NCBI RefSeq assembly: GCF_010183535.1
Contig: NC_071331.1
Coordinates: forward strand, 12,338,001 to 12,402,000
From: Caenorhabditis remanei
Taxonomy: Eukaryota; Nematoda; Chromadorea; Rhabditida; Rhabditidae
DNA length: 64,000 nucleotides
Direction: 5' to 3'
A model generated the notes under the pieces. That model was not told where the DNA came from and searched no databases. It saw nothing but the letters and a program-made list of their open reading frames with translations. Made by a program: the position numbers and the translations under genes. Below, in pieces: positions 268 to 62,818 of this stretch. Positions within the stretch are counted from its first letter, which is position 1. The number at the start of each line of letters is the position of its first letter.

Positions 268-333
268 GAACCTTATGAAGTCGAGACATTGGTTGATATA
301 ACCAAAGTGGTTGATATAACCGATATGAAACAG
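268..333 (-). ncRNA. Predicted 21U-RNA (piRNA) gene
   Basis: An exact CTGTTTCA core lies at 326-333 on the minus strand. A YRNT start signal (CAAT) puts the first U at 288, 45 nt from the first C of the core, so the RNA would cover 268-288. Known from C. elegans: such motifs drive single piRNAs. Inference: this is one such locus; expression is not shown. Confidence 0.45.
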
Positions 334-1171
334 ACTTTTTTGAGAATGACAATTATCGTTTTGGTACGGTAGAATTCATAATAATGTGTTAGACTGATAT
401 TTAGCTGTATCCTCTTCACCAATCAAGAGTCTAGAATACCAGTTTTCAGAAAAAACCTCTATTTTGAATCTCAGAAATCTTGTGTATCAGTAAAGGTCAT
501 TTGTCTCAATCAAACACCAAATCACCCCCTAAAAGATCATGTTTTTGACAGACTGAGCCTCCAGTAAACATGTCTTTGGATACTCGAGTAAATTCATATT
601 ATTCATTCCCATTTTTTGTCATTTTTTGTCAACTACCACCCATCGAAAAAAAGCAAAGCATCCGTCATATTCTTCCTTCTTCTCCTTCTTCTTATTTCTC
701 GCCCTTCTTCACTCCAATATGCTCGTCCGTTCTCCTTCATTTCTTCTTCTCCTTCTTCTTCTTTTTCTATGAGTTATATAGCCTTTCTTCTTCTTTTTTT
801 TTTTTCATTTTTCACTTAAGCTCCGCCTACTAGTCCTCCTTTTTCTCTATTAGAGAATCTCATCTTTTTTTTTTGAAAGTAGTGTTCCTACCAGTCGTTT
901 CCCATTGTTCTAATCAGATTACCATGTCTCTTTGGTTGAAGAAGAGCAACGGCAGAGAACGGAGAAGAAATATTATAAACAGGCTCTTTTCTTTTCTCTC
1001 CCGTGTTGTTTTTTCGGTGTTTTTTGTCCTCCTAATTGCTCTTTCTCTGTCTTTATTTCCTTTCTTCTCTCTATCTATCCTCGGTTCCCGCCGCTAAGCC
1101 ACGCCTCTTTTTTCGGTTGAAGACGTAGAGCAGAAGAAGTTGAGGACACCGCCGTCGCATCACTCCTCCCG
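334..1171. other. Region upstream of the neuropeptide receptor gene
   Basis: No gene is seen. From about 600 to 1100 the plus strand is strongly pyrimidine-rich (runs of TTCTTC). Two CCGCC-type boxes, AAGCTCCGCCTAC near 819 and AAGCCACGCCTC near 1096, precede the receptor ATG at 1172. Open frames here are low-complexity Ser/Phe artefacts of the pyrimidine tract. Confidence 0.5.
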
Positions 1172-4100
1172 ATGAACTTCACAACAATCTCTGATTCTTC
1201 TTCGATTCTCACATCGACGATTACGTCAAGCAGCTTGCTGGAATCCACTGCTGCCGTACCTGATAGCGATGATTCGGATTTCTATGAACTGTCTCCTGTA
1301 GAATTGGTGAGTTGGATTCTATTCGTGGATTATTTTAATTGTGATCAGTTACTGTTTCAATGGGGTTTCAAAGCTTGTCATCCCATTTGTATCTTGCTAA
1401 AAGACGCTTAACCCAATTAAAACTGATTGAGATCTTAAGAAAACAAATATCTGGTTATTGAAGTGGCGAAAATTGAATATTTATGTATGGATAGAGATGT
1501 ATGCTATTTGATAATTATCCGAAACCAAATTTCAGTAAAACGAGCAGGTTAAAGTATTTCGAAGCTTATTTCAACACCCATTTTGAAACTAAAAGAATGC
1601 GGCCATTTTATCGAATTGGGATGAAAAGGTTGATCAAAACGACTTCAGCTTTATCATGATCTCGGTCAGACATTAACTTTGTTACCGCGTTGTTCGGCAG
1701 TTTTTGCCCCTACGAGCATCTACCGAGCAATAACAAACTACTAATATTTTTCTATTTTTTAATAAAATAATTTCAAACAGTATTTTTAGTTTTAAATTTT
1801 TCGAATTTTCGAATTTTCGAAATTTCCGATAATGTTTTTAACACCCCCGCCCACCTTCTATAATTAATTAAAAATATTATTACCCAACACAAAATTAATA
1901 TCGAAAGCATCTTCTTCCTGTAGCCGTCATCTATTTACCCAAGAAATCCATCATGGAAAATCTAAAATTCAGTTTTTTCTGATGTCTTCTTTTTCTAATT
2001 TTGATGGAATTACATCCGGATATTTCTCGTCAAAAAATGGAATCATTCAGGGAGAAAATGAATTTCAAATGAGGTGGCATTGTGATTCACTGAACCTCGG
2101 ATCTTCGTTCCTGCTCTCTCTGAAACATTGAAATCGAAAATTATTCATATGAAAGTATCAGTTGTTTGTTTATGACCCACTACTCCCTCTTTTTGAAATG
2201 AAAAGAAATACTACAACCATTTGAATTGAATTTTCTCTACTTAATCTCAATTTCACGGTCTCCTACGCGTGAAAAATTTTATTAATTTGCACGTCGTCTG
2301 CGTCTCTCACAGTGATTTTTATCTCTCGTTTTCTCTTTATAGACGTAACTTTAAACTATCTGGTGACTTGGAAGAAGCAGGGTTTTGATTGATTTTTATG
2401 AAAAGTAGATGGAGGAAGACATTCCCAGCATTTTCATATATTAAACGTATTATTCTGCCGTCTATGAAGCTCATTATCTCTTGTTTAATCGAATGGAGTG
2501 TTCTGACCCGTATTCGAGGAAGTGGTCTACGCTTCGTTCAAAATTGGATGGAAGACTGTTAATGAAGGCTTCCATAAGCATTTTGAACACCGAAACCGTT
2601 CAGAAAATCATCAGATGGATGAAAAAATTAGGAATTCAGTAGATAATATGATGATTTTATACTGCCGATGACCTAATTACGATGTATTTCAAAAATCGCT
2701 TGCCATGAGTTTTTAGAGAATTTGAAATTAATCAGTTTGGACCTTGAAATTTTAATTTTAGGCAAAAACTGAAAAAGTAGATTCAAAAATTCAATTTCAG
2801 TACAAAAATACGATTTTTTCGTACTTTTTGTCAAATATCTTGAAAACAAAATCAAAAATCAAAAAACTGGCCCCATGCGAAGTTTCTAAATTTCATTCTG
2901 ATTCGAATGAGCCATAAATCGAGAATTTTCGTTGGAAAATAAAAAAGTAGATGCATATATAAGAATTACTACTCAGTCGAAGGAACATCTTAAAACTAGA
3001 TCAACTTTTTTATTTTCCAATGAAAATTCTTGATTGACGGCTCATTAAAATCAGTATAAAATTTAGAAACTTTGCAAGATGCCACATTTTGGAAGTTTGA
3101 CCTAATTCTTGAGAAAAATCGGAAAATGTGCAGAAAATTTGCCATTTTAAACTGACATCGAAAATTGGGATCTGCTTTTTTGGTTTTGTTCCAGGAAGAT
3201 TCATTCCACTTAAATAATGATCAGATCAAAAATCTCTACAACCCCATGGAAACAGTTTTTAATCAAATGTCGTAATTAGGTATACGGTATCTCAGCTGAC
3301 TGAATATTGGTTGAGAACGGAGTGTTTAGGAGCATAAAAGATTTCCGGATGGTTTTTCAGAGCTAAACGATCACTAACAACTTGTTCAACAAAATTATAG
3401 CGCATGAACAACAAATAGTCTATTACATTTCTCAAATTCGGTCAAGTTTCCCAGTTTTTCAGTTTCTCGTTCACTGGCTTCCAAAGTCTAAGTTCATATT
3501 ACTAGTGCATATCAAAATGTAGGGCTTTTTTTCCTCTATTCGTTTTGAAAACTTCTAGTCAAGTTGGTACTTTTCCTTGAAGCTAGAGCGTTCTAAACAA
3601 TTGCCCTACTTTTTTTCTCAAAAATAGCCAAGGACAATACTCAGCGTGAAAGGTCAAATGATGTGGAAAATTATTTAGAATTTTTTACGCGTAGGAGACC
3701 GTGAATTTCCCATTTTTCGATTTCAATCTAAATTTGGATTTTCCTCTCTCGGACATTGGGATTAATGTCCAGAGATCCTCCCTCTTCATTCCAAACGTCA
3801 GACAAAAAAAAAGAAGGAAAAAGGGAAGAAATCTGGATATAAAAAGAAAGTAATTAGAAGGGATGTTCTGTTTTGAAGACAATTATCTAGAAGGTTGAGT
3901 CTGAAGTTTTTCAAGAGTTGTCTAGAGAACTCAACAAGGAAAAGTAAGAAGGAAGGACTTGAAGTTCTTGGATTTGGCAGGAAGTAAAATTGATGTTGTT
4001 CTGTGAAAAACAAATTGTGATTTGCCCTTATCAAATGAGTAGAAGAATTGAATTGAATGTAAATGACCATAATGGATCAAAAGATTTTACAAAAACAGTT

Positions 4101-7100
4101 ACTCACTTTTGTTAAGCTATGGGTGTCTAGACGGAAAACAATTGAATGGCAAACTTCGTAGAAACGCATGTCGTAGTTTTGAAACGTTAATTTTTTTTAA
4201 CGAACCGCATTTCTCATTGATTAAGTCTTTTGATATTATGTTTGTGCTTGTAGTCAAGAAATTTATTATAGCGAACAGTAGTTACTAGAAATGTTTACTT
4301 GTCATCAAGTTGACATAACTATGAGATAACCAGTGAAGTTACTGAAAGGACTACTTTTTACAACTAGCCAATTTTTTTTTGATTGAGGAGTCTATTGACG
4401 GTATATAATAGAATCTAGAAACTTCACTACGGTATGAGTTGAACAAAGGTTATTTGCGGGGTTTCTAACTTATTCATAATCTGCGATTTTTCTTTTGCAG
4501 ATGATATGGTGTATGCTGTATGCAGTCATTGCCTTCATGGCAGTTGTTGGAAACCTTCTCGTTCTCTACATCACGCTATTCCGTTTAAGGTGAATTTTAT
4601 TCCTTTGAATTGACGGAGATTCCTCCATCCACATGATTTTTGAAGATCACATCAGATGAAACTCGATCTCCGTGTCTTGTTTGTTATTTTTAACCCGGAA
4701 ACTAGAGTGAAAAAACCGAAAAATCCGAAAAAAGCGGAAAGTCAACTGGTTGTGACACGTTTCTTGTTCTCACGCATCTTGTTAGTTAGCTCCTCTTCAC
4801 TGAGAATATTCTGTTTCACCGGGAAACAAAAACAGGATGTTTCGTTGAATTCCTTCTCTGAATAAGCGATCACTTTTTCTTGAAGAGAGATGGTTTTGGG
4901 GGCGATTTACGTGCAAAAGAGAGAGAGCGAAGAATTGAACTTCTTCGATATTTTAACAAGCTTTTGACAAAATATAGAAAATGAAAAAATTCCACTTCTG
5001 AAGGACTCAAAACTTGAAATTGTGATGAAGTGCTTTTCAATTAATTACTGTATGTGAGGTTTGGATCTCCAATACCGAGCTCGAAAATTGATTATTTACG
5101 CTAATTTGATCCTTTCTATCTAACTTGCAAGTTACTCGATAGTTCTTATCCCAAACGTACACAGTCATTAATCAACCAGCATCAATTCAAATATTTCTTT
5201 TTCATTGCTGAAGAGCTTTGATGCTTTTTTTATAGATTACCTTAAAAGTTTACTGCAACAGCCTCTTCAACAATTCAAAGAAGCTTCTGCCAAAAAGTTT
5301 TTGTTCTCCCCGTTTTGAACCATAACTCAAAATGGTCACGATTTTTTCAAAAAGTTAATTGTTCTCTGCGGCTCTCCGTTTCTCAAACTAATTCTCTAAA
5401 AAAGCTTTAAAATCATTGAAAAACATGAGCAGGAGATTACCCAAATTCGAAACCACAAAACTATTTTCAGAGTTCGTTCAATCACCACATATTTCATTTT
5501 AAACCTGGGATTTGCTGATCTTTTCACGGGCATCTTCGCGATTCCTTTCAAATTTCAAGCGGCCCTTTTCCAAGTAAGTCTCTCTTCTTTTTGTGTTTAA
5601 ACCCAAGTGTTGAAAAAAAGAACAAGAGAAGAAATGAAAAATGACATTCGATCTGTTTCCGGAGGTCTCAGAAAAGACTAGTTTGATTTCTCTATGAATT
5701 ATTGAACTGAGGAAAACAAAGAAGAAGTCAAGGGACTATATTGCAACATGGTTCGAAGGGAACTTCGGAAAAGAAGAACCCAAAAACATTCCAAGTTATA
5801 AATCTTTTTCTTTTTTTAGTGTGAAAAAAGGGAAAACAACTTTTCTTTTCAACAATAAAAAAGCGCTTGTTTTGATGTTCAACTCATCGAAAACAGATGG
5901 GATTTACAAGTGTGAAATGTGAATAACGGGGTTTGGAGCAGGGAAAAGTTAGAGAATCGGAAATCGGGCAACTGGAAATTAAAAGAATCAGATAAACGGT
6001 CTAGTTATTATCAGAACGAAACGGTTGTTATAATTTATCTGGTTCGTCTGAGCTAATTTTTTTTATTGGATCAAGAGAGTGCAACGACTCGATAATTTCG
6101 TATGATCTTTTCACTACTTTCTGAAACAGTATCCCAAAAACATTAACTCAAATATCTATTTTCAGGAATGGTTCTTACCTCATCCGCTCTGTCGAATCGT
6201 TCCATACGTGGAAACAGTTGCTTTGACAGTATCAGTCTTCACTTTGGTCACATCTGCAGTCCACGAATTCCGTACAATGTTCTTCTCTAAATGCTCTCAA
6301 ATGAGTCCGAAATCTGCAAAAAGATGTGTGCTTTTGATATGGATCATGTCGGTTATCGTGTCACTTCCACATGGATTATTTCATCAGACTTACGAGTTTG
6401 AGGATGATAATGATTCCAGTAAAACTATTGTTCAGGTATCGTTTGAGATTTTTGTTTGACTATCAAAAACCGGGTTTTTGTCTAGTTTTTGAAATAGGTG
6501 TCCTACGAATAAGTTTTACTTCTATTCCTAAGCATTACAGTGTCTCCCAGTGTACCCTGAAGCCGGATGGTGGAAAAGCTACAACATCTATCTCGTCATC
6601 ATTCAATACTTTTTCCCAATGGTCATTCTTGACACCGCTTACACAATGATTGCTGTGAAAATCTGGACGTTGAGCAAGGCTGGAGAAGAAATGGATGAAA
6701 CAAAAACTGCAAATCAAAAAGTGAGTCCATTGAGTGTAGTTTTACATGTAGCATGGGATTGTATCACTTTTCGACTAATCTTCTTGCAGTGTGCTTTTCT
6801 TCTAACACTTTCATAACTTCTTTTCAATAATCAATTTCTATCGCTTTCTCACTACTCTTTCTCACTCTGCACTGTCTTTTCTCTGGAATCTAATCTAATT
6901 AATCCCATTAATCCGAAATGTAGATATCAGTGGTATCAATGGTTCCACCAAACACTCAATTATCGCAGCTCATGCGAACTCTCATCATTGTCGTCGCCTG
7001 TTTCTCTTTGTGTTGGTTCCCATTGGAGACGTATCTTCTTCTGAATGAACTAAAACCTGAAGTCAATGGATGGAAATATATCAATCTGGTGTTCTTCTTC

Positions 7101-7723: not shown

Positions 7724-7776
7724 ACGTGTATTTTCCTCAGATTCTTATAATATTTGATGTTATGATGCATTATTGT

Positions 7777-9736: not shown

Positions 9737-11908
9737 ATGTCCTCTTCGTAAGTTTTCTTCTCTCTCTCGAATTCAGGTCAATTCTCTTTTTCAGAAACTC
9801 GTTACATGCCAACGCCCCACCTCATCACTTCGAACAAATCGCCAAAAATTTGCAATCGAAGCGTCGAGTCGGAGATTTTAGCACTTGCGATATCAAGCTA
9901 AATCTGAAAAACGGGTTCGATTTGGTGCATTCGATGGTAGTTTGTGCTCACTCCGCTCTCCTTGCTGATGCTCTCGAACCTCAACGGGCTCCGTATCAAC
10001 CGATTGATTTGAAAGAGTTTGAAGGGGCAAGTGTGAAGAGAGTTATCGATTGGATGTATTCTGGAAATCTCAATATTCCGGAGTCTCAAATTGCAGATGT
10101 TCTTGCTGTCGCCTCGTACCTTCGCGTGAGTTGAATGAATCTTGATATTTCTCGCAAAATGATGTGTTCAGGTGACAATGCTCCAACAGCAAATCGAACA
10201 AAAGATCCGTAACCACAGTGGGAATCCAATTCTCGCCTTGAATATTGCTTCGGTTCGAGACTTCTCAGTTATGGATGCGACAATGAATGGATTGGTTTAT
10301 GATTTGACTGATAAAGTGGCTGGATTGACTATCGAGGAGATCTCGAAACTCACCGTCAACTCAATGATTGCTGTGATGGCATCAGTTCTTCCAATGCAAA
10401 AGAAAGTTCCGCTCATCAACATGTTCATTTTGTGGATAATGGCAAAGAAACCAGAGAAGGAGACAATTAATACAATTCTTCAAAGTCTCGTCATCAGTGA
10501 TATTACTTTTGATGCATTGTACGCAATCAGATACTCATTGAAACAATATTTGACTAATCTGGATATTGCCTCCAAATCTCAATTGTCGATTTCTCCAAGT
10601 GGAACGATTGGAATCAAGATTGTCACCAAGAAGACAGCGAAACAATCTGAAAAAGTTGCTTCGTCGACAAATGTTGCTCCTCCAGCGGAACCATTCCATC
10701 GTTCTCGCTCCGAGATTTCAGCTATTGAGCATCTTCCAGATCCGTTCAACAGGTATGAATCTAAAACGTGTTTTAGTTCAATATGAATCACTTAAGCCGC
10801 TCGAACTACCGCTCTGTTTCCGAAATCGAGGCGATCAAAAAGATTCCTGATCCATTTGAAAAGTAAGTTGATGTTGTACAATATCATGTAAATTGAAATT
10901 ATAGATCATTGACCAGCAGCCAATCCAACAATAGTATTCTTGTTCGTGAAACTAACACCGGTCCGAAGTATTTCACCAAAAGTGAAGTGGAGAGCCTTCA
11001 AAACATGACTGATCCGTTTGCAAGTAGTAAATCTGAGAAACTTCTTCCACCGATTTCTCCAGTTTACAAACCATCGAGTGGATTCAAGAAGCCGCATTGT
11101 ACTGCGAAATATCCGTAAGTTTCCGAGATAAAGCTTTCTTTATCGAGTATGTTTTCAGTGGGTGGTCCAGTGACATCGTTCTGAAAAACAAGGAAATGGA
11201 GCGTCAGAAAATGTTGAAAGCGAGTTTCACGGCTTCAGAAGCTCAACTGGTTCGTGATATTCCAGATCCATTTGGGTAAGTCAACTGCCTTTTGGAAACA
11301 AATACATGAATAAACTATTTCAGTCCATCTGATCCTGTGATTATGAGTCCAGCCAACGGAAGTTTGAACAAAACGTTTACAAGTGGTGCCAAGCAGAGCT
11401 TCTCTGGACATTCCATGGTTAACAACAACTATATTGTGAAGAATCAAGTAGCCAGAGCAGGTTAGTTAACATTTCTGTTTCAGGCTTATGTTGTTTTTCA
11501 ATGACAATCAGAGAAATGATCCACTGATCCACTGCTATATGGTAATCATGTTACAGACCGTCCTGCCATTCTCTCCACCATGTCGAGTGCATCTCCGAAC
11601 GTCCTCAGCTCGAGATCGGAAATTGATCCAAAAATGATGGGAACCAGAAAGACTGAATCCGAAATTCGTGAGATTCAAGCACTGCCATCTTTCCATTCTG
11701 CATCGTTCCACACTGCCAAAACCAGTCAATATTCGCATACACCAAAAGGAAACAATGATAAATCGCAGAAGTCTCAGAAATCTGATAAAACTTTGAAGTC
11801 TCAAAAGTCTCAAAAGTCTCAAAAGAAACTTCGTGAGTTTGCTGATTCAATTTAGTTTTTGATAAAACCCTTTTTTCAGCAAGATCGCAATATTTGTACC
11901 CGAACTAA
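9737..11908 (+). CDS. BTB/POZ-domain protein with repeated DPF motifs
   Basis: Nine exons: 9737-9747, 9795-10125, 10172-10752, 10797-10862, 10905-11114, 11159-11275, 11324-11460, 11557-11832, 11880-11908, predicting 585 aa. Residues of roughly 15-125 form a BTB/POZ fold (CDIKLNL...HSMVVCAHSALLADAL...VKRVIDWMYSGNL...ADVLAVASYL), followed by a helical region like the BACK/post-BTB segment. The C-terminal half is Ser/Lys-rich and disordered, with four related motifs LPDPF, IPDPF, MTDPF, IPDPF near residues 302, 324, 364 and 434, and ends in SQKSQKS repeats. BTB proteins often act as CUL3 adaptors or as scaffolds; which applies here is not visible. The exon 3/4 junction is the weakest: the in-frame acceptor (CTTAAG at 10791-10796) is poor and the intron only 44 bp. 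Confidence 0.85.
11475..11540 (+). ncRNA. Predicted 21U-RNA (piRNA) gene in BTB-gene intron 7
   Basis: The octamer CTGTTTCA lies at 11475-11482. The start signal TGAT puts the first U at 11520, 45 nt from the first C. It lies inside a 96-bp intron, on the sense strand of the host gene. Confidence 0.45.
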
Positions 11909-13649: not shown

Positions 13650-13666
13650 CCATTCCTTTCAATAAT

Positions 13667-39672: not shown

Positions 39673-39737
39673 CTGTTTCAAAGTGGATAGATGTATGAAC
39701 TCGTTGAGTTTCACAGTACTGTTCGATGTGTAGATAT
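39673..39737 (+). ncRNA. Predicted 21U-RNA (piRNA) gene
   Basis: The octamer is at 39673-39680 in the context GGAACTGTTTCAAAG. The start signal CAGT puts the first U at 39717 (44 nt); a second signal, TACT, would give 39720 (47 nt). Confidence 0.42.
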
Positions 39738-42700
39738 CTATCACTTTCGGAAAAATATAAGCCAGCTGAACTCAGATTTCGGCTTTGAGTTTTGTGAAAG
39801 TAAATAGATATGAATTATATAATTAAGAAACTGGAAAGATTTGAGAACTTGTAAAGCTTGCTCACAAGGAAAATTTACGTGGAAGACGTTTCTAACACGG
39901 ATACGATCAGACATGGACAAGATACTTCTTCGTTCCATGAATCTCAAACTGAGCACCTCGTCTGTTCTGTACTCCCAGAATGTCCAAATTCAGATGATAT
40001 CCATCTTCTAGAGCCCGCTGTAGTTGTTTTTGCTAGGGATCGGCCTAACTCGACGGAGAATAGACAATAGACGTCTTGAAAACTGACGATGAAGAGACTG
40101 GTTCTCGGAATACCTGACTCTTGAAATTTTGAAATCTGATTGATGTCTACTGTAAGCTTTATCAAAACACTGATAAGAAGAAGTCTACGACTCACACATA
40201 GAAAGAGTGCTACAGTAACCCAGACTTCACATGAACTTCTTCCTCGATATCCCTTCCATATAATTTCAAATTCTCTCAGAAAGCGACACTAAAATCAAAT
40301 AAAAGAGTGTCCCAAAAAGAAAAAGATAGACGGATTGAGAGAAGAGGAACCTATATATGCTCACATAGAGATGTACCAAACACATCTGCCATCTGTGTGT
40401 GTGTGGAGTGAGTGTCCTCTTTTCTTCCCTCCGAGAGAGAGATGCTAATTTGTGTCGTCCGATATATATATCGTCTGGGTCTCTATGAAGTGAATACTAT
40501 TCAAGGTTTCGTCTATCCACGGAGCATTTCATTCGAACATGCTCGGAGACTCTCGACCAACAGAGGTCCCTGATGGAAAACATTGTTTTTGAGATGAAAA
40601 CTTTTTTTTCATTTCTCGTTTTTTCTTCTTTTTCCATGAAGACAGAAAATATGAGAAGACGAAAAAAGAAGAGAGGAACTCAATATGCGTCGAAATATAT
40701 AAATAGGAGAAGAAGCAGAAGAAGGATCTAGAATGAAGTTTGTCCCGAGAAAAATGAAGAATAAGGGAAATGGAAAAGGGACTAGGAAAGGGATTGAACA
40801 ATTATGTATAAATCATCAGTCGATAATTGGATGTAAACGTTTCGGTTTCTATTCTTCATCTAGTGTCACGACGAAAAAAGGAGAAGAGAATGACTGACCG
40901 ATCGGCACACTTTTTTAATGGTAAAGGACGACAGGAACAGAATGAAAAAGAGCGGATTTTGTATAGAGGAGAGAGGATACAAGATGAACTGTAGAAGGAC
41001 ATTCAAAAAAATGTTGAACTATTGACTCAGAACCAGGGAACATTTGTAGAGCGTCGGCTCATGCCGCCTAGAATCCGAACATCTGGCCTAAAATGTTGGT
41101 GGAAAATAGGCAAATCTAGATTCGATATTACAAAAAGTTTGGATCCAGGATGTTCTGAAACTAAAAAGTACCAATTAGAACTTCACGAGAGTTTGTAAAA
41201 ATCGATTAAAATAAGAGTGATTCCTATTTTTACCAAAGGTCAAGATTCCTGGTTTCGAAATGCCCCGTTTTTGGTATTACAGGATAATCGAAAATTAATA
41301 TCGCAGGTTTTTGGAAATCTCAAAAAAAAAGAGCCACGCTGACATGCGGACCATCCACGAAAAATCAAAAGTTACAACATAAGGATTCTGGGAAACAGTG
41401 GAATGAAGGACACAACTTTTCCATATTTTTGAAAACTTGAATTCCCACAGTTAACTCATGAAAACAAGAGTCTTCAATTAGAAAAAAAAAGAAAAACAAC
41501 TACTTTGGACCTAGAATTGGTAAACAGCGTCTCTCCAAAAAAGGGAATAAACAAATAATGAGGAACCTTATTCACTTTTCGACTCGCATACACATTGAGC
41601 ACTTCTTCTCGTTCTCTCCATGTGAAAGACCAAGAAATAATAAGAGAAAAAGAGAAAGGGACCCGATGGTGATTGGTGTGTAACCGGGGTAGTCGAATAC
41701 TCTTCAGGAGGAGAAAACGGGCGGAGAGAGTGTGGAAGACGAAGAGACGCAGACATATCTCTTGCACTGACCCTCGCTTTCCTCCCTCCTCGTCGCTTTG
41801 GAGACCTTTTCACAATTGGCTAGTTGCCAATACGGTCAACGGGTATGCGATGGGAGAGAGAGACAGTGTGTCCACCAAGAGAGATGACAGACAATTCATG
41901 GTGATGTCATCATTTGGTAGGAATAAGAGAGGGAGAGACTGTTTGACCAGAGAGTTGGTGTGACTCAGTGCATGAGTTTGGTACCAGAGGTATCAGTTAG
42001 TACTAGTCACATGTATACTTTTTGTAAGACTGTTTTGATGGTAAGAAGCAATGACTGGACCTATGGTGGGCTACTGGAAACCTACGGGTGAAGACACCAA
42101 GGGAAGAACATGACGAGTTCAACAGATGTTTTCGAAGCTAAGCACCTTGAAACTGATTCACGGAAGCTCGTGTTTGTGAAAATGACTTCAGTAGAGAGGA
42201 AGCTATAAATTTATCTTACTAAAATTCTGGTGTATGTTACCGAAATGTTCCAGAAACAAAGTCCACAGTGCCAAGATTCCTCTACTGCCATATGTCTAGA
42301 AGTTCCGAAAATCACGTCCTCGACAATTTCTCTTGTTAACCTCGATGGCTCTAGGTGACATTTTCCAGATGTTTCTTACAAAATGAACTCATAAACTTCT
42401 ACTAATTTTGACATACAACATCTTCTAGCTCAGAGTTCAATTCAAGGGCGGAAATTTTACTAACGAGGGGAACTTTCCTTCTGTCCAAACTCAAACGAAT
42501 ACCTCGAAAACAAAACCCACCAGTTTATCGGTTTTTCGAAACCGGAAAGATTTCTCGGAACCAAAGAATAATAGAAATGATAATAACTTTTGCTCTTTCT
42601 CTCGTTTGCCTCATTTCTCATATCTTATCCTTTTCTTCTTCTCCTTCATCTTTTCCTCACCACCCACCCCAATATCAAAATTGTGTCAGTTGTGTGAAAT

Positions 42701-45078: not shown

Positions 45079-45146
45079 TGGAAATGCACAAGGAAGAGAA
45101 CGAGTCAAAAATCAATCAGCTGGTTCTTTTGAATTTTTTGAAACAG
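45079..45146 (-). ncRNA. Predicted 21U-RNA (piRNA) gene
   Basis: The minus-strand octamer is at 45139-45146 in the context AACTACTGTTTCAAAAAATT. The start signal CGTT puts the first U at 45099, 47 nt downstream, the long end of the spacing seen here. Confidence 0.42.
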
Positions 45147-45924: not shown

Positions 45925-45990
45925 ATTCTCACACGATTTCAACAATTAAATGTTTTTCTCGTAGATCACTATCACTAATATCTGAAACAG
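45925..45990 (-). ncRNA. Predicted 21U-RNA (piRNA) gene
   Basis: The minus-strand octamer is at 45983-45990 in the context TTCCCTGTTTCAGATATT. The start signal TAAT puts the first U at 45945, 45 nt downstream. Confidence 0.45.
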
Positions 45991-46729: not shown

Positions 46730-46797
46730 AGTGTCCAGTAGCAATAAAGATTGAAACTTTTGGCAGAGTGGCCCGCTGTATGGTAACTCTGAAACAG
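46730..46797 (-). ncRNA. Predicted 21U-RNA (piRNA) gene
   Basis: The minus-strand octamer is at 46790-46797 in the context AATTCTGTTTCAGAG. The start signal CAAT puts the first U at 46750, 47 nt downstream. The spacer is GC-richer than at other loci, so this is a weaker case. Confidence 0.35.
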
Positions 46798-47078: not shown

Positions 47079-49363
47079 TTATTTCTGATAGCGATTGATG
47101 ACGAGCTTTCCAGTCTTTTTTCTTCCAAAATGAATGATCAAGATCACTAAAATTCAGAGAGGTTATGGAAACACAATTGTTTTCAACTCACTGCAAACGA
47201 CGAGAAGCAGGATAATGAGTCCGATTGTGATAGCCACGTACCAAGTGGCAATCTCTCCGGGAATCCAGAGACTGAAACTGGTGGTGACCGACGGTTTGAG
47301 GAACATGTAGACGGTGGATGGATCGATTTCAGCCAGCGAGCAGGTTGTCTGAAAAATCATTACTGTTTCAACATTCTTTTAAAGACAAGAAATTATATCT
47401 CATATATTCCATTTTCACTCTGTAAGAAATAGAAATTAACTCACATTATCCATCATTGCTTCAATATCAATATCGATTCGATGAGTTCCAGTGGTGAGAT
47501 TGGAATAGAACATGTCAGTTTCTTGACTTTTGCATGGTGACAAGTAGACCATCATGCCTCCGCTTCTGAAAAAAAACTGTTGGTTGTCGTTTGAGCGTTT
47601 CATTAATAAATGGTTCTTCATAAAAAAGTTAAGAATTCATTGAAACCGAGAATCAGAACTTACAAAACATCCAAGTAAGCCTGAATATTCTTCATCGTCG
47701 GCTGGTATTTCAATTCGACAACTTTCATTTCTCCACCATTCAATGTGAATTTTCCAGTCTCATACTCTGCCACGTGGCTATCAAGTGTTGGCTCAGCTCC
47801 GTTTATAAGCACCAGCATGGTCCCGTTTATGTAGAATTTGGACTCTAGACTGAAAATTTGAGTCATTAACTAGGAATATTTGGAAATCGGTTACCGAATG
47901 ATGAGAGGAGATGTTGGCTGAGTAGAGTTACTGTAGAAGGCGATGTCGGAGTCACAAGAGTAGGAATCTAAATACAGGAATGAAAGACCGTAGTATTTAG
48001 TAGGGAATTACCGTAGTACAATTCCATTTGGGGACTTTTCAAAGTGATTTCAAAGTTGGGTGCATAAGAAATTGTGTAGAGAACTCCAGGTTTAGTAGAG
48101 CAGAATGAGATGAAGACCTGAAAATTTTTTTATTCAATCATGGATGGATGATGTTTCCCAACTAAGTCTAGCTGAATTCTAAAACAATTATGACAAACAC
48201 GAAACGGTGAATATCAGGAAAACAAAAAGAACTCGCTCAACGTTCCTAGCCTTTTCCAGTGAATTCACTCACCTCCACAGCGTGCTCCACATTTTCAGAC
48301 GTCACACTTATCAACACATTATCCAAGAGACTCTGCAGTTTGACTTTCTGAATGTATGGGTTGTTTTCTGAAAGCTTGAGTAGAAAAGTCAATATTCAAT
48401 AAGTTCTACCCACCTGACACGGCGAACTCATTAGGATCTCCAAAGGTCTCAGAGGCTTGTGCTCTGAAAATGTGACGCGCGGTTCTGGAAAAATTTATCT
48501 GTCCGATTGCATGATCTTCTGGATTTTCCAGATGCAGATAGATCCTGAAAATGAAGTTGTGATCTTCTTGAACCTAATGATTCATGCAACTGACTTCCCA
48601 ACCACTCCCTTTTCCTTTCCACATTTAATCCAATCTTCCAACATTTCATCTGGAATCTGGACTTCAATACTTCCAGAATATCTTGCTATCTCCATTTTGA
48701 GACATTCTGCACTTCCGGAAAGAAAAACTGAAAGAGGAGATGAAGTTTGAACCGAAAGGACATATGACAACAAAACAGATGAAGAAGAAGATGATGTGTC
48801 TGAAAAAATGGAGAAAATTATGATGGATAGCACTTTTCTCTCGATTGAGTTTAGATGACTTTCTACTTCCATTTGAAGATGGAGTTCCCCCCTTTTTTAG
48901 TTTCAAAAATCAATTTTTCCTTGAAAAAATAATATTTTGGACTGTTCTCTGTCTATATTGTTCTCCATATTTATGATTCAGGTTGGTCAGAATTTAAATT
49001 GTTCATGTTGAGATAACTAGGTATCCTTCAAATTCCCCTTGCTTTTTGAATATCAGTTACTGATTTTTAGTTGATTTTCCACTGAATCTAAAAAGACTTA
49101 TCCAAAAAATGTTATCAGATCTTGAAGGTGTTTGGGATCCTTAATACATCAGCTAAAACAAAAGTGATAAACTCAGCATAATTAAATAGATACGCGGTCT
49201 CATCTCTAAATGTTCGAGTTTTTTTCTTACCTGAAGTGGGATTCAAACCGATCTCCTTCACGAGTGAATTATTTGGAGCCAAGTTCAATTCCATTGAATG
49301 CAATCCATCGCATGATCCAATAAGTATCAGTAGATTCCAACAGAACCAAACGATTCGTGTCAT
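47079..49363 (-). CDS. Type I transmembrane glycoprotein of unknown family
   Basis: Ten exons on the minus strand: 49231-49363, 48595-48799, 48414-48544, 48273-48367, 48012-48117, 47895-47967, 47664-47849, 47445-47565, 47192-47348, 47079-47146. They sum to 425 codons (424 aa) with every junction in frame. A signal peptide covers about residues 1-20 (WFCWNLLILIGSCDG). The ectodomain of about 365 residues is beta-rich in appearance, with nine or so cysteines and six N-glycosylation sequons (NNS, NFS, NST, NGT, NLT, NTT). One TM helix (YVAITIGLIILLLVVCMILII) precedes a short basic tail, HFGRKKTGKLVINRYQK. I recognise no domain. The topology suggests a surface receptor or adhesion protein. The last exon uses a TTTTAG acceptor. 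A predicted 21U-RNA lies antisense in its last-but-two intron. Confidence 0.88.
47363..47428 (+). ncRNA. Predicted 21U-RNA (piRNA) gene in an intron of the membrane-protein gene
   Basis: The octamer is at 47363-47370 in the context CATTACTGTTTCAACATT. The start signal TATT puts the first U at 47408, 45 nt from the first C, with an AT-rich spacer. It lies in the 96-bp intron at 47349-47444, antisense to the host gene. Confidence 0.5.
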
Positions 49364-50399
49364 TTTTCTGCTTTCCGAATTCAGGAAACAGGAATAGAAA
49401 AAGCGAGAAAAAACAGAAACTGATTCTTTTGTGATATTAGTCAGTTGAATAGAAAGGAAATAAAATGACAAGAATGAATAGAGAAATATGGAATATAAAA
49501 CGGGGTAAGAAAAAGAAACAGTATATCAGAACCCAGAGAATCAGACACGTCGAATAGTGCTCGTTTGGCGTGGGATCCCTTACCCTTGCCTCGTGCTCAT
49601 CGTCCATGCGGAGGTGTACAGAAATTTGCATTTTCATTTTATGACCAAAAAAAGAATCGAGGTGTCTTGTCATACATGACACGAGAGGAATACGGTGACA
49701 TGTGTTGATGGAAGAGGGATTTTTATGAATTTGGCATTTTTATTTCGGGAAAAAAACATGAGGAAATCTTGTGACTTGGAAGATCTGGAGCACGCTTTGA
49801 TTTGTTTAGACTCTGGACTTTAAAATACTACTGCAAAATAGTAATGTTTCATCATTTTGACAAAAGAATAAAGATATAATTTTTTTTTGATTAATTAAGC
49901 CTTTTTCTACTCGAACAAGCAAGCATTGAAGTCTTAATGCGAGTTTCAGAGATTCATTTTGAAGTCGTTACGCCAACTAGTTCGCCATAAAGTTGGTTGT
50001 CTCGCCTACTCGACAGCGTGGAAAATTTGTGACAACTCTTGAAACAGTTTCAAAATGTTTTCATATTCGATACAATATTACTTTTGATTACATCGAAGCA
50101 TAATCAGAAAAACCATGTTCTCCTTGCCTATTTTCCATTTTTTCGAACCGTGTAGCGACTCCCTCACAATGTTCACATTTTCTGCTGATTTTCGAATGCG
50201 AGTCGTAGCGTCACCGAGTTTGACACCGAAGATGTTGTCCCGGATACACGACGGCTTCGAATTTGTGAAATGCCACATTTCGTATAGTTTTGATTTTTCT
50301 AGAAACGGCTACAATGATGTTGAACTTTCTTGTTTCTTCTGGAGCGAAATTTGTGAGAACTGCTTGACGAAATCTTTAGGATTGGTGATTCATTGTTCA

Positions 50400-50464
50400 C
50401 TGTTTCAGAAAACTTTCTTTGTTTCAGAAAAAAATTGATTCGTTGTGTACTCGTTTTCTTCATT
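50400..50464 (+). ncRNA. Predicted 21U-RNA (piRNA) gene
   Basis: The octamer is at 50400-50407 in the context TTCACTGTTTCAGAAAAC. The start signal CGTT puts the first U at 50444, 44 nt downstream. Confidence 0.43.
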
Positions 50465-53400
50465 TTAATTTCTCGAATTTTCCAACCTCTCTCCCTTCAA
50501 ATATCCATGTTTTCAATGAACCCGATCTCCTAGTAATTACTTTTTTCCTCTCCTTCCACCATTGCTCCCCTTATTTTAATAAAAACAAATCAATTTTCAT
50601 TTTTCACACTTATTATTAGTCTTTGTAACAAATCATAACATTCTCAGAATTCTCCCTCAGTCTCTTTCCTTCTTCCAACCACCTACATATCCGGACAACA
50701 TAAAATTCCCTTTTATTCTTTTGATTTTTGATTTCTTTATAACATAAAACAACTACTTGATGTCTTGTTGTTTTGAGTAAAAAGGAACTCAGTTTTTATG
50801 GTTCATAAAAAGTGCATTTCTCATATGAAATCGGGGGATAATTCAAATCGGAAAAGGCTACGAGACTCTGGGAACAGTTCTTGATGGGAATTTGTGTTTT
50901 GGTAGCAGAAATTATAACTTTTTTCATAAAATTTTATACAGGAAATAGTAGAGAAGTTTACAGCAGAGCAGTTCGAGTCCTTTACTATTGACGGAGAATT
51001 ACATACCCAAAAATTTTTTTCAGATAGTTTTCTCATCACGGATTTGTGATCACTTTCGAATACATCCTGGTTATTTGATATCCTAAAAACATTTCAGAAA
51101 TCAAAGTATTTTGAAATTTCGAAAAGAAACTTGCCAATTAATCATGGATACTTCAAAAAGTTGGCAGATTTCTTCTTCATAAACACATTTGAACCCCCGT
51201 TTCTCATTGGTCATTCGGAAGTTTGTCTCAAAATTTGAAATGTTTTCAAACTATACACATCGAATGATTTTTGGGTGGTTTTTTGATGTGAATGAAGATC
51301 TAGATCAGAATGAGATGATCTTGATTTAAGAATGTCTGATGAGGTTTTCGACTTTCGATTGAAAAACTAGAGAGACTGAAAACTACTGACTGTTTTACAG
51401 AAGACTTAAACATGGATCTCACTTTATTTCATTAATTCAATCGTCCGTTCAAAATCCTACCTCCCTTCCCAAAATCATTCCGACCACCACCACAGAAAAG
51501 GAATCTGGGAAACCTCTTTCCCTCCATCTGCAATCACGTGATGTTGCGAGGGGTAGACTTCTCCTTCTCAGAAGAAAAAAGTCGTTTGCAACTACCAAAT
51601 GGAATAATTCATATTTGAAAAGAAGCACAAATTGACTCACTCATCCACAACTTTTTCTCTCAGTTTTCTTCCCTTCCTTTGTCCATTTTTCTCTTCTTTG
51701 AACTTCTTTTTCTTCTCTTAACTAGGATTTCTGAGCATTGGAACTTTCGGCTCTTCCTTCCGATTCCACCCACAACCACGCTTGTTTTCTTTTTTATTTT
51801 TCAAAAAAGTTTTGAATAATTTATTTTTGCGAAGAAGTATCAAATAATGATCCCTTAGTACTCATCTTCATTGTGATCCTTTCTCGAAACCAATCCAATT
51901 TGATCTATTTCAATTCTATGTCATTTCATACGTAATAATGTAGGAGATATTCTGCACACAAATACAAAGTGAAGTCTCTGTAAAAGAGAGATTAATCCTT
52001 TTGACAACGTGTTTCTTGCTATTTCGGAATCCTTATTGTGATAAAAGATAGATTACAAAGTGATGCTGATATTCAATGGATTCTCAGAATTCAGGGTATT
52101 TTTATGACTTGGAGTGAATCAGATAGAAGAAACAAATATGATTATTTAGATATTTATAGGTTATGGTGATAGTGAAATGTGAAAGTTATTGTTAAACAAT
52201 GTTCACTTCAACGGAAAGAGTTCAATTTTAAAGAAAGTTACTGTTCTAAAGTTTTCTCAAAAATTATGTCGTTTTCTCAACAGCGCTATCAAGCTAGGGT
52301 TTTCCAATAATTCAACAATTATCTGAAAATTTTCGAAACTTTGAGCTGATAATAAGTGTTCTGTTTCCCTATATTGGGATTAATGTTGAGTCGAAATGAG
52401 TCTCATTCTTGCCGCTTTACTCTTGAGTTTATCAGAGAAAACCATTCAAATCACCTACAAAATGTGTTTCCTTCTGTCGATCCCTTTTCTTTTTCAAAAT
52501 AAATATTCTGGAAACACTTCTTGCAAAAACCACTTCTCCACACAATCTTCTCTCACTAATCCCCCTTTTCTTCTCATAATAAAACATGTTCTCACGTAGA
52601 CTCTTGAGTTATTTTCGACTATTTCCTTCCCCTCTGGAGTAAAGATTACAATGATATCTGATTGATTGTGATGTTTTGGTTTCAGTGAGTACAAAAAGAA
52701 CTAGTGCCATTTTCAAGAAGTTGACATTTTGCACGAACGCACGGAAACGTAACTTCCCAAAAAGAGATAATTTTGTTAGGAAAAGTTTGCTTCCGGGTCA
52801 GAGAAAATGAGAAAAGTGCATGTTTGGAAGATCTTACTACCGGGTGGTATACTGTAGAGCTATCCGATAGAAAACGAAGATTAAAAGTCAGGAAGCAGTA
52901 CTGCGAAATGATTTGCTACAACTAAACCAAATTTGTGTTTCAGTAAATTTTTGTTGCTGATGATATTTTTTCACAACAGTTGGTTCTTAATTGTGTGAGT
53001 TCCAGTGTTCGGATTCGTAACAATAGTTAGAAGCAAACTATTCTGTATCCCTTCAAGTCAAGAAGAAAATTGAGTCCTCGTTCCCCAGTTGTGAATCATC
53101 TCACTCAGCGCCTCAGTCTTCAATTGGACCAACTCCCTTAAAAACAGTGTATACCGAATTGTTTTCTTCTCCAAATCTCGTTATCTACCCACTCGCCGTT
53201 CACCTGTTTTGACTTGAACATTTTGGGACCCACTCAATCACCGTACCCTCCCCAATTCCCCTCTTTCATTTAATTTACTTTCTCTAGATGACGCGCATTC
53301 AGGTAAATCGAATGTACCTTGTCTTAATCAGATTTTTGTTCATCTTATCTATCGTCACTTTCTTGGAGAAAAGAAGAACTTTCATCGGAAAGAGTTATTC

Positions 53401-55031: not shown

Positions 55032-55098
55032 TTACGAAAGAAAGTCGTGAAATTGATTATGGTTCTTGCATCACACCTTCATCATACCTCTGAAACAG
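55032..55098 (-). ncRNA. Predicted 21U-RNA (piRNA) gene
   Basis: The minus-strand octamer is at 55091-55098 in the context ATTTCTGTTTCAGAGG. The start signal CAAT puts the first U at 55052, 46 nt downstream. Confidence 0.43.
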
Positions 55099-59708: not shown

Positions 59709-61297
59709 CTTATCCTAATAAGATATAATTAGTAACTGAAACGGGAAATAAATTTAATTAGTGTGCGGTTATGAAGATGCATGCTCCAAGTTTATTACTG
59801 AGAATATGTTTTTATTATATTTGCTTGCTTAAAATTCCAAGAACTCACACAATAATTGTACACAATTCACCTATAAAACCAAGAAAGAGGCTTTTCAACG
59901 TATTCAACTTTGTGGGGAGAGTATCGAATCAAGTTGTTTTTTCTCAAACGTTTTCTGAGTTTTCAGAAACAGTAATTATCTCAAATTATTATTCTCGAAT
60001 CTTTTCCAAAACTTTTGTAACTAAATCAGACTCGCATAATAACGCTTTTGATAGTTTTTCATAATTTGTGCCCTCTCTGAAACTGTACTTCTCTCGAAAT
60101 TCATTCATATCTTTTTCTCCATTTTCCAATTATTAATTCTACTCCATTCCAATCACAAAACCGCGGGGTGTGTGAATGCACTTTCCCATGATTCGTTTCC
60201 TCATGCCATTTCCATTCAATCCGTCTCCCGAGATTCCAATTCCCTTCAGTCTAGATGCCAAGAGTTCAATTCTTTTGTCAACATACTAGGTCATCAATCC
60301 CTCAATTACCGTAATCCTCTAGTGAGATTAAGTTTTCGATCTCTCCCCAAGTATCTAGTAAGCTCTTTTCTTCCCTCCAATCCACCCGGCGACTCTCTTC
60401 CAGAGTTCTCAGAAATTTTTTATTAAACTAATCCAATCTCTCATTCACAATCAAAAAGTCATCTAATCTTCTTGTTGATAATAGTTGACAAGCAGATGGG
60501 ATTAGGGAAAATGTGTGTGAGGTGAGATTTTCTCGACGGCATTTTCAGATTTTCTAATATCAATCATGTATTCAAATGGGGTAAACGTAGGAATCAAGGT
60601 CTGATACTCTTTTTTGTTTTAAAGAGTCAGCCAGAGAGTATTTTACAATTTAGGCCATTAATTGAGTGTGAGGCCTACCGTAATAACCCAGTCTTCCAAT
60701 TTCTTATCATCCAACAACACCCTGTTCCCATAACTTTCACTCCACCCGCCCGATTCTACCCTTTCACTGCAAAACTGAGAGCTTGAATTCCCCTTCAAGT
60801 TTTCCCAGAATACGAACGCTTCTTGTCTATATACCTAAGATCCTTATTATTCTTGCTCACTACACGGATTAACTTTAATTGGTTTTACCTTGAAGGATTA
60901 TCCTTTTGTGCTCTTCTGTCGGACGGCTCGCTTATTAAAAATCAGAAAAATAGATTTAGGGAAAGGATATTGTGTTCTTATGACACTAAGCTTTTGGAGC
61001 ATCACACAATATGAATCGTCACAAAGATTGACTAAGCAGAAGAAGAAGCCGTTGGGTTATTCTTTTCATTCTGGAATTGAATAGAACGAGACTTTCACAT
61101 TTGAGCAAGATTGTTTTTTGAGGGTTTGATGGTTCTGATATTTTGATTTTTTAATGAGGAGATGTGTGCAACATTGTGCAATGCTTTTAGAGCCATTATC
61201 TTAGTACTGAAACTAAAACCATTTTCGTTGTATTTCTTTGTTTCTCATTCAAGTCTTCCTGTCTTATTCTCCAAACTCAAACACTAATTTCAGAAGC
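59709..61297. other. Upstream region of the neuropeptide gene
   Basis: No gene was seen. The plus strand is pyrimidine-rich near 60060-60470. The sequence ATTTCAG ends at 61293, 4 bp before the ATG of the neuropeptide gene, and could be a trans-splice or 5' UTR splice acceptor. A Ruby-core variant lies at 60078-60085 on the minus strand with start signals at 44 and 47 nt. Confidence 0.5.
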
Positions 61298-62818
61298 ATG
61301 CAACTGTACGCCGTGCTTTGCTTCCTGGCTCTTCTTTGTCTTTCATCCGGACAAATGACATTCACCGATCAATGGACCAAGAAGAGAGCCGCGCTTCACA
61401 AACAGCAATTGTAAGTTTAGTAAATCTATTTAAGAAATAGATAGAGGATTTTTCTCTAGTGGCTGCAAATCGTATCCTGTGGTTACTACGGGGAACTTTA
61501 AATCGTAGGCGAAAGTAGACCAACGGTACGGTTGCTGTTATCATCTTTTCCATCTTCAGCCTTATAGTTGTAAACCTGTTGAAACAGGATACATTTCTAA
61601 TCACAAATAGGAAGCTATCTTAATATAACTCATCCATAGATCAAATCAAATTAGAAAAAAACCGAGAGTCAAACTTTGAAGTGGCGGGATCTGGTCGCAT
61701 TAACTGAATAATTCAAATTTCCTTAATGTGTCACAAATAAGGAAGACAAGGGAAAATTGAATTAGAAAGTTTATTTGGGAGTTTGTAAATGACTTGTGAC
61801 CGAAAGTGATAATTTATCATCAACTGAACCTTAGTCACTTCTTTTGATACCCATTTGAAACCGCAAGCATTTTTCCAATGACACTTATGGAGAGAGAGAA
61901 CAAAAATCAGACAGTTTTTCACCTGTCTTGATTATTGGTAACTTGAGAAAACCAGACAGTTTCAGACTTCTTTTGAGGAAATGGAATCGAAGATTGCTCT
62001 ATTCTCTTCCTTGTTCTCTGTTTTGATTTCGTGCTCTTTCGTGCTCGTCACGCCTCGTTGAGTCCCCCCCTCTATTCAAAAAAGTTTCGCCGTAAAATGA
62101 ATCTGAATTCATTCGAAATTTACGATGTATTCATGAATAATCTATAATATTTCTACGTCCCCTTTTTTCTCAGTGTACTTCCGAATGTATACATGTACTA
62201 TGATCATCTTAAAAAGGGGTGAGAAGAGTTTACAGAAATATCACTTTTGTTCTCAACTTCCAGAATTATGTTTCCCTTTTCGTCTTCAGACAAGAATAAT
62301 TCATTCTCATTAATAAGAGTGTTTTCATCTAACTCACCCCCCTCATACTCTCAGCAATAGTAGAAAATGAGATGGAGGGAAATAAATGCATGTTCTGCAC
62401 GAACCTTTCACGTCATGACACGGAGAGAAAATGTGTGAAGATTTTGAGGAAGAAATTATAGAGATCTGAAATGTTATGAATTAGAGGACACTTGGAATCA
62501 TCGAGGTTTCGAAGTTAGATTTTACGGTTTCGGGACTCTCATAAGATCGGAAAGTATATTATTTCATCATTAGTTTAAAATCGTTATCAACAAATATTTT
62601 GTTAAAGAAATATCAGCGAATTGTACCCAAATGCAATATTGTGTAATTTCAGCCCAGGGGTAACCCCAGAAGAACCAATCTGCCCATCTGATCGTGTTCA
62701 ATTAGTTTTCGAGCAACTCGGACAACTCCAAAGAGCCCAACAACGTCTTACCGAATACCTTGCATCATGCGCCTACCCAGTCGAAGCTCCTCAGAAACTC
62801 GAGAAACCACAGCAATAG
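61298..62818 (+). CDS. nlp-47: AKH/GnRH-like neuropeptide precursor
   Basis: Two exons, 61298-61410 and 62653-62818, give 92 aa. A signal peptide (AVLCFLALLCLSSG) is followed directly by QMTFTDQWT and the dibasic site KKR. This matches the C. elegans AKH/GnRH-related peptide pQMTFTDQWT encoded by nlp-47, known to act on the GnRH-receptor homologue GNRR-1 and to affect egg laying. The N-terminal Gln directly at the predicted cleavage site fits pyroglutamate formation. No Gly precedes KKR, so C-terminal amidation is not expected, unlike most insect AKHs. The remaining associated peptide (PGVTPEEPICPSDRVQLVFE and on) has two cysteines that could pair, like arthropod AKH precursor-related peptides. 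The intron is 1.24 kb and carries a predicted antisense 21U-RNA. Confidence 0.93.
61520..61587 (-). ncRNA. Predicted 21U-RNA (piRNA) gene in the neuropeptide intron
   Basis: The minus-strand octamer is at 61580-61587 in the context TATCCTGTTTCAACAGG. The start signal TGAT puts the first U at 61540, 47 nt downstream. The core is part of a small inverted repeat (CCTGTTGAAACAGG), so the match could be partly coincidental. Confidence 0.33.

What the first reader, a model, noticed from the sequence alone, without database searches (positions are those of the whole stretch)
326..61587. A scattered piRNA (21U-RNA) cluster: 19 exact Ruby cores, 16 with correctly spaced start signals
Exact CTGTTTCA occurs at 1352, 11475, 21137, 38820, 39673, 47363, 50400 (+) and at 326, 6122, 21529, 25459, 25724, 39250, 45139, 45983, 46790, 50040, 55091, 61580 (-, left coordinate). 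From base composition I estimate 2-3 by chance in 64 kb on both strands. All 19 lie outside coding exons. In 16 a YRNT signal places a U 44-47 nt from the first C (most at 45-46); by chance about a quarter should. Many share the longer context TACTGTTTCA and an AT-rich spacer. This is the architecture of type 1 piRNA genes in C. elegans, which cluster on chromosome IV, where I recall the snpn-1/ivd-1 homologues also lie. The loci sit in introns and gene-poor stretches on either strand.
Basis: partly seen in the sequence, partly recalled or inferred. Interest (0 to 1): 0.92.

Follow-up and report, generated by a model that had tools for sequence, protein, structure and literature searches.

The report
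Sparse piRNA gene cluster, roundworm chromosome
This stretch of a roundworm chromosome holds a loose scatter of tiny genes of a known kind, each predicted to make one 21-letter guard RNA for the germline; the pattern is real and fits what is known from related worms, and it looks like a thin part of a much larger cluster.

Summary
The window has 20 exact CTGTTTCA cores (19 listed; 4811+ missed) against 4.8 in shuffles; unclustered DNA of the same genome predicts about 7.5, so the count alone is modest. Spacing decides: a YRNT signal puts a T 45-47 nt from the first C in 15 of 20 cores, against 4.3 on average in 26 other 3-nt windows (max 8, p=6e-7). Other DNA of this chromosome shows the same: 41 of 55 and 76 of 108. 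A promoter model trained without the window finds 44 candidates here (12 expected from background), 27 with inexact cores. The window (C4:12.34-12.40 Mb) lies on the sparse right side of a broad Ruby-motif domain; two right-half samples are far denser. The genome encodes a Piwi-clade protein. I read these as type I piRNA (21U-RNA) genes of a Caenorhabditis (contig lengths recall C. remanei): new members of a known kind, expression untested. Outside the window, dense clusters carry back-to-back cores about 22 bp apart.

The parts
268..333 (-). piRNA candidate: exact core 326-333, predicted U at 288
   Evidence: YRNT at offset 45; model score 3.3
1352..1418 (+). piRNA candidate: exact core 1352-1359, predicted U at 1398
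   Evidence: YRNT at offset 46; score 3.0
4121..4187 (-). piRNA candidate with inexact core ACGTTTCA at 4180, predicted U at 4141
   Evidence: model score 4.4
   Evidence: no YRNT at offsets 41-50; score 1.7
6063..6129 (-). piRNA candidate: exact core 6122-6129, predicted U at 6083; antisense, just upstream of an exon of a 7tm receptor gene
   Evidence: YRNT at offset 46; score 4.6; acceptor ends at 6165
11475..11540 (+). piRNA candidate: exact core 11475-11482, predicted U at 11520
   Evidence: YRNT at offset 45; score 3.3
21137..21144 (+). exact core without a start signal
   Evidence: no YRNT at 41-50; score -0.6
21529..21536 (-). exact core without YRNT at 41-50; weak candidate
   Evidence: score 2.3
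25400..25466 (-). piRNA candidate: exact core 25459-25466, predicted U at 25420
   Evidence: YRNT at offset 46; score 5.0
25666..25731 (-). piRNA candidate: exact core 25724-25731, predicted U at 25686
   Evidence: YRNT at offset 45; score 5.1
38820..38885 (+). piRNA candidate: exact core 38820-38827, predicted U at 38865
   Evidence: YRNT at offset 45; score 4.4
39192..39257 (-). piRNA candidate: exact core 39250-39257, predicted U at 39212
   Evidence: YRNT at offset 45; score 4.6
39673..39740 (+). piRNA candidate: exact core 39673-39680, predicted U at 39720 (alternative 39717)
   Evidence: YRNT at offsets 44, 47 and 50; score 2.4
42478..42544 (-). piRNA candidate with inexact core CGGTTTCG at 42537, predicted U at 42498
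   Evidence: model score 4.3
45079..45146 (-). piRNA candidate: exact core 45139-45146, predicted U at 45099
   Evidence: YRNT at offset 47; score 5.1
45925..45990 (-). piRNA candidate: exact core 45983-45990, predicted U at 45945
   Evidence: YRNT at offset 45; score 5.6
46730..46797 (-). piRNA candidate: exact core 46790-46797, predicted U at 46750
   Evidence: YRNT at offset 47; score 3.0
47363..47428 (+). piRNA candidate: exact core 47363-47370, predicted U at 47408
   Evidence: YRNT at offset 45; score 5.4
50040..50047 (-). exact core without a start signal
   Evidence: no YRNT at 41-50; score -2.0
50400..50466 (+). piRNA candidate: exact core 50400-50407, predicted U at 50444 (YRNT) or 50446 (model)
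   Evidence: YRNT at offset 44; score 4.4
50419..50484 (+). piRNA candidate with core TTGTTTCA at 50419, predicted U at 50464; overlaps the previous unit
   Evidence: model score 4.6
55032..55098 (-). piRNA candidate: exact core 55091-55098, predicted U at 55052; best-scoring site of the window
   Evidence: YRNT at offset 46; score 5.7
61520..61587 (-). piRNA candidate: exact core 61580-61587, predicted U at 61540
   Evidence: YRNT at offset 47; score 2.3

Best explanation
The window is a low-density stretch of a chromosome-scale domain of Ruby-motif (type I) piRNA genes in a Caenorhabditis nematode. Each unit is a tiny autonomous gene: a core close to CTGTTTCA, a spacer of about 37-39 nt, and a YRNT initiator whose T is the first base of a 21-nt RNA. 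By analogy with C. elegans, the USTC complex (PRDE-1, SNPC-4, TOFU-4, TOFU-5) binds the core in germline nuclei, Pol II starts 2 nt upstream of the T and makes a short capped precursor, and after trimming the 21U-RNA is loaded on the Piwi protein PRG-1 and scans for foreign transcripts. Shown here: the motif, its enrichment, the fixed spacing, the chromosomal domain and a Piwi-clade gene fragment. Inferred: transcription, processing, PRG-1 loading, and male-germline bias of cores with a 5' C. Thirteen candidates score above 4 (1.6 expected from background) and 44 above 2 (12.3 expected), on both strands (23+, 21-).
For: Spacing 15 of 20 vs 4.3 expected, p=5.7e-7; same spacing in 41 of 55 and 76 of 108 cores elsewhere on C4. 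YRNT-specific in left+dense. CTGTTTCA is the top 8-mer in eight left-half samples. Model trained without the window: 44 vs 12.3 background and 5.4 in order-3 Markov sequence. Extended motif 117 genome-wide vs 2 in the reversed control, the 100 listed places all on C4. Piwi-clade peptide at C1:628061-628363, 121 bits to PIWI-like 1 vs 60 to AGO2. PMC3597512: CTGTTTCA core and A/T-rich spacer of about 35-42 nt (passages). PMC6468775: C. remanei 21U-RNAs have been profiled, with features largely identical to those of C. elegans (passages).
Against: No small-RNA reads were available. Core density alone is only p=0.0036 over real background. 4 of 20 exact cores lack a YRNT at 41-49. In the window, inexact cores are weakly supported one by one: non-C NTGTTTCA 7 of 21 phased vs 4.2 (p=0.11), CAGTTTCA 8 of 19 vs 4.4 (p=0.054), and inexact sites scoring above 4 are 3 vs 1.1 (p=0.23). 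The model leans on the core: it also passes 36 sites in the 10-kb C2 region L029, where phasing is absent. The same background samples trained the background part of the model and served as control. The downstream A/T-rich signature is weak and not clear in the window.
Confidence: 0.92

Rival explanations
1. The cores are mostly 3' splice acceptors (TTTCAG) and other common TTTCA words of an AT-rich, intron-rich genome, with no promoter role.
For: 7 of 20 cores read CTGTTTCAG; the real-genome background of the core is higher than shuffles suggest.
Against: 6 of 7 G-type cores and 9 of 13 others carry the YRNT at 45-47; splice sites predict no signal there; CTGTTTCAG is 2 in 120 kb of background versus 7 in 64 kb here (p=0.011).
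Confidence: 0.04
2. Decayed or silent piRNA promoters: part of a former cluster whose units are no longer transcribed.
For: Low density, inexact cores, position towards the sparse side of the domain.
Against: The phased share of exact cores in the window (15 of 20) is like that of the dense (76 of 108) and left-half samples (41 of 55), which argues against long decay.
Confidence: 0.1
3. Binding sites of another factor (for example a forkhead protein, or SNAPc at snRNA genes) that merely share the core.
For: PMC3597512 cites forkhead proteins that bind a CTGTTTCA probe in vitro (passage); the SNAPc motif is related to the Ruby motif (PMC6436959, passages).
Against: No snRNA or other Rfam family reaches its cut-off in the window; a phased initiator is not expected of such sites; a C2 region with 56 exact cores shows no phasing (3 of 56), so core and spacing can come apart.
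Confidence: 0.03

Closest known systems
C. elegans type I 21U-RNA (piRNA) genes with the Ruby motif, chromosome IV clusters
   Same: Same 8-nt core, spacer in the same range, YRNT start, both strands, chromosome-scale clustering. The snapin/ivd gene pair recalls C. elegans chromosome IV near the smaller cluster (location recalled, not tested).
   Different: The left-half domain plus window tolerates CGGTTTCA, CAGTTTCA and ATGTTTCA cores with phasing. The window has 3.1 exact cores per 10 kb, far fewer than the 37 and 71 of two right-half samples of the same chromosome.
C. briggsae piRNA clusters (PMC9683057)
   Same: CTGTTTCA core, YR before the T, broad clusters on chromosome IV.
   Different: C. 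briggsae also has a cluster on chromosome I; here one 10-kb C1 sample had 2 cores and the 17-nt extended motif has no match on C1-C3 (list ordered by contig). One sample does not exclude a C1 cluster.
Pristionchus-type (P-type) piRNAs (PMC6436959)
   Same: Ruby-related GTTTC motif; at least one unit here (6122) appears intronic.
   Different: The motif here is concentrated on one chromosome and candidates are rare in gene-dense blocks, as in the Caenorhabditis type.

Membership tests
Type I (Ruby-motif) 21U-RNA genes | Upstream core CTGTTTCA, over-represented | tested here: met
   20 vs 4.76 shuffled; 20 vs 7.5 from real background, p=0.0036
Type I (Ruby-motif) 21U-RNA genes | YRNT with T 43-50 nt from the first base of the core (spacer 35-42 nt) | tested here: met
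   15 of 20 at 45-47 vs 4.3; same elsewhere on C4
Type I (Ruby-motif) 21U-RNA genes | Clustered on one chromosome, both strands | tested here: met
   (capped lists and samples); strand 23/21 in the window
Type I (Ruby-motif) 21U-RNA genes | A/T-rich signal downstream of the 21U sequence | tested here: inconclusive
   slight GC drop and T excess in left and dense sets, not clear in the window
Type I (Ruby-motif) 21U-RNA genes | Piwi (PRG-1) present in the genome | tested here: met
   Piwi-clade fragment at C1:0.628 Mb, one of four places tested; orthology to PRG-1 not proved
Type I (Ruby-motif) 21U-RNA genes | 21-nt 5'-U RNA bound by PRG-1; dependence on PRDE-1/USTC | not testable with these tools
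   no reads or mutants
Type II 21U-RNAs | No Ruby motif, at Pol II promoters | tested here: not met
   the candidates are defined by the Ruby motif; type II loci in the window were not looked for

The most novel reading that the evidence does not exclude
This chromosome carries two architectures of type I piRNA genes. One is a broad, sparse left-half domain (the window included) whose promoters accept relaxed cores (CGGTTTCA, CAGTTTCA, ATGTTTCA). The other is a set of hyper-dense AT-rich right-half blocks (37 and 71 exact cores per 10 kb in two samples; 108 of 119 NTGTTTCA cores begin with C, against 55 of 114 in the left samples), where 13 pairs of cores stand back to back 19-23 bp apart (mode 22, about two DNA turns; 0.77 expected) and the arms are phased as often as single promoters. 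These would be bidirectional piRNA promoters, perhaps bound by paired USTC complexes: a separate promoter class and a route by which piRNA genes multiply. Against it: the unphased C2 region L029 has 7 divergent pairs at 16-21 bp too, so mirrored cores also occur without the piRNA spacing.
Probability: 0.5. Interest if true: 0.55.

Novelty: new member of a known kind. Interest (0 to 1): 0.35.

Why it matters
It gives 44 ranked loci with exact predicted 5' ends on a chromosome of what is probably an outcrossing Caenorhabditis (species recalled). It also shows that phasing of YRNT to the core can point to piRNA genes and to tolerated core variants from bare sequence, without reads. The contrast between a sparse relaxed domain and dense strict blocks with paired promoters bears on how piRNA clusters grow.

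Tried and rejected
Splice-acceptor explanation: rejected by the phasing of G-type cores. Satellite origin of the dense clusters: each of L024 and L027 has three tandem-repeat rows; one short row in L024 (6971-7005, two copies of 17 bp) contains the core, the other five consensus units do not, so tandem repeats cannot account for 37 and 71 cores. A duplication of about 13.5 kb near C4:23.63-23.65 Mb is suggested by repeated spacers, so some paired sites there are not independent. Pfam on ten window ORFs: six matched (7tm, BTB, SDR, teneurin EGF, snapin below cut-off, acyl-CoA dehydrogenase), four did not. Four PIWI-domain places tested by PDB search out of 67 matches: one is Piwi-clade, three are nearer to AGO. 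Rfam and tRNA scans of the window: nothing (ARAGORN ran in its bacterial setting). Primary sources that I recall (Shi 2013, de Wit 2009, Ruby 2006) are not held; nothing is cited from them. Searches for divergent, palindromic or head-to-head Ruby promoters (listings only) and term look-ups in two USTC papers showed no report of back-to-back cores; this covers only the held open-access library.
Full report
OBSERVATION. All 19 cores given are present, plus one at 4811+. Dinucleotide shuffles give 4.76 on average, none of 100 reaching 20. Shuffles are a weak control because TTTCA words and splice acceptors are common in real nematode DNA. Against twelve 10-kb samples taken as unclustered (14 cores in 120 kb) the window has 20 where 7.5 are expected (p=0.0036); the eight C4 samples give 0.75 per 10 kb, the four from other chromosomes 2.0, the window 3.1. 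CAGTTTCA is also raised (19 in the window, p=0.009). De novo, CTGTTTCA is the top 8-mer of eight left-half samples without the window (55 vs 5), but in the window it is not among the top 22, which satellite words lead.

SPACING. Of the 20 cores, 15 have YRNT with its T 45-47 nt from the first C; 26 other 3-nt windows average 4.3, maximum 8. The same offsets stand out in other DNA of this chromosome: eight 10-kb left-half samples, 41 of 55 (other windows mean 14.1, maximum 25), and two dense samples, 76 of 108 (mean 25.0, maximum 35). I saw the offsets of all three sets in one call before fixing 45-47, so the choice was not blind to the window. The unclustered samples show 5 of 14 (2.7 expected, p=0.11), and a region on C2 with 56 cores shows 3 of 56 (10.5 expected). 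The signal is YRNT: at 45-47 in 162 left+dense cores YRNT sums to 117 against 38.9 expected, RYNT to 37 against 38.6, YRNA to 13 against 39.2; in the window YRNT is 15 against 4.4, YRNA 0 against 4.0 and YRNG 2 against 1.9.

WHERE IT LIES. The window is C4:12338001-12402000 of a 130.5-Mb assembly with six chromosome-sized contigs. I recall these lengths as those of C. remanei PX506; no call names the organism. In twenty 10-kb samples along C4 the exact core counts are 1 at 0.25 Mb; 4-10 in eight of nine samples from 1.55 to 11.95 Mb (the ninth, at 10.65 Mb, has 1); 0-2 in four samples from 13.25 to 17.15 Mb; 6 at 18.45; 37 at 19.75; 6 at 21.05; 1 at 22.35; 71 at 23.65; and 0 at 24.95 Mb. Four 5-kb samples at 12.50-13.05 Mb hold 1, 0, 4 and 1, so I could place no sharp edge. 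In grouping I put L017 (10.65 Mb) with the background although it lies inside the domain; L023 and L025 (6 cores each) were left out of the left, dense and background sets alike; L029 and L034-L037 were kept apart. TTACTGTTTCAA occurs 1283 times genome-wide against 128 for the reversed word; of the 100 places listed 31 are on C1-C3 and 69 on C4, where the list stops at 4.5 Mb. TTTTTACTGTTTCAAAA occurs 117 times against 2; the 100 listed are all on C4, none on C1-C3, and 17 are not listed.

MODEL. I fitted a mixture model to all 484 GTTTC sites of the eight left samples, without the window: a weight matrix around the core, a start-site matrix and a spacing distribution. It was seeded with CTGTTTCA and YRNT, so those features are not a blind discovery; from a flat start the spacing settled on 45 (27%), 46 (34%), 47 (13%) and 48 (9%). 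In the window 44 of 283 GTTTC sites score above 2 (12.3 expected from the background samples, p=2.6e-7 per base; mean 5.4 and maximum 12 in 30 order-3 Markov sequences) and 13 above 4 (1.6; Markov 0.4). Seventeen of the 44 have exact cores (2.1 expected) and 27 inexact ones (10.1 expected, p=0.0008); above 4 the inexact ones are 3 against 1.1, not significant. Limits: the background samples also trained the background matrix, and the score leans on the core, since the unphased C2 region L029 gets 36 sites above 2 and 8 above 4 in 10 kb. With phasing as the read-out over left samples plus window, tolerated variants are CGGTTTCA (15 of 19 phased, 3.5 expected), ATGTTTCA (19 of 40, 7.1) and CAGTTTCA (23 of 50, 11.2), and more weakly CTGTTTCG and CTGTTTCT, out of 21 words tested. 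In the window alone these variants do not reach significance (CAGTTTCA p=0.054, non-C NTGTTTCA p=0.11).

SURROUNDINGS. One of 44 candidates lies in the gene-dense blocks 6.5-19.5 and 26-37 kb, which hold 92 of 283 GTTTC sites (p=3e-7). I chose those blocks after seeing the candidates, so the p-value is not to be taken at face value; the direction matches PMC6436959, where only 4 of 9,634 C. elegans 21U sequences in the clusters come from active chromatin domains (passages).

MECHANISM. In C. [quoted passage not shown] Each gene is an autonomous unit with an A/T-rich spacer of about 35-42 nt, and a 5' C in the core favours male-germline expression (PMC3597512, passages). C. briggsae uses the same core in clusters on chromosomes I and IV (PMC9683057, section 5 and passages). 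A review states that C. remanei small RNAs have been profiled, with 21U-RNAs of largely identical features and 2-3 times as many as in C. elegans and C. briggsae (PMC6468775, passages). The genome here has 67 matches to the PIWI domain, exon pieces counted separately; of four places examined one is clearly Piwi-clade. Transcription of the window units is an inference.

BEYOND THE WINDOW. In the two dense samples, 13 divergent pairs of exact cores lie 19-23 bp apart, 7 of them at 22, against 0.77 expected for uniformly placed cores (maximum 5 in 2000 trials); 6 pairs have both arms phased, 6 one arm and 1 none, i.e. 18 of 26 arms, like single cores (58 of 82). One convergent pair within 60 bp was seen. 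A genome-wide search of a strict form with 8-14 bp between the arms found 31 pairs, all on C4, 0 in the reversed control; some of these are copies within a duplication. The left samples have one such pair and the window none. The C2 region L029 has 7 divergent pairs at 16-21 bp and convergent ones as well, without phasing, so mirrored cores alone do not prove a piRNA promoter.

VERDICT. A correct and well-reasoned first reading of a known kind of locus; ordinary in kind, useful as a ranked prediction.

Noticed in passing
L027 (C4:23650001-23660000) and L024 (C4:19750001-19760000): Hyper-dense Ruby cores (71 and 37 per 10 kb) with back-to-back divergent pairs 19-23 bp apart (13 pairs, 0.77 expected); 18 of 26 arms phased to YRNT.
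   Followed up: partly
L029 (C2:1140001-1150000): 56 exact cores in 10 kb on another chromosome, 38 of them CTGTTTCAG, some mirrored, but only 3 of 56 phased to YRNT: a region that mimics the Ruby core without the start spacing.
   Followed up: partly
C4:23634889-23653262: Pairs with identical or near-identical spacers recur about 13.5 kb apart, suggesting a recent tandem duplication of a piRNA block.
   Followed up: no
58607-59694: Arrays of a 20-bp unit (GGGACGTCTAAATATTTTTT and its reverse complement) in opposite orientation on either side of about 59150: a large inverted repeat or foldback-like satellite; its words lead the window's k-mer enrichment.
   Followed up: no
9003-9162: Tandem array of a 16-bp unit GCGACATTTCGCAACT.
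   Followed up: no
left half of C4 (L010-L016, L018) and window: CGGTTTCA, ATGTTTCA and CAGTTTCA are phased to YRNT in the pooled set and so seem to work as Ruby cores here.
   Followed up: partly
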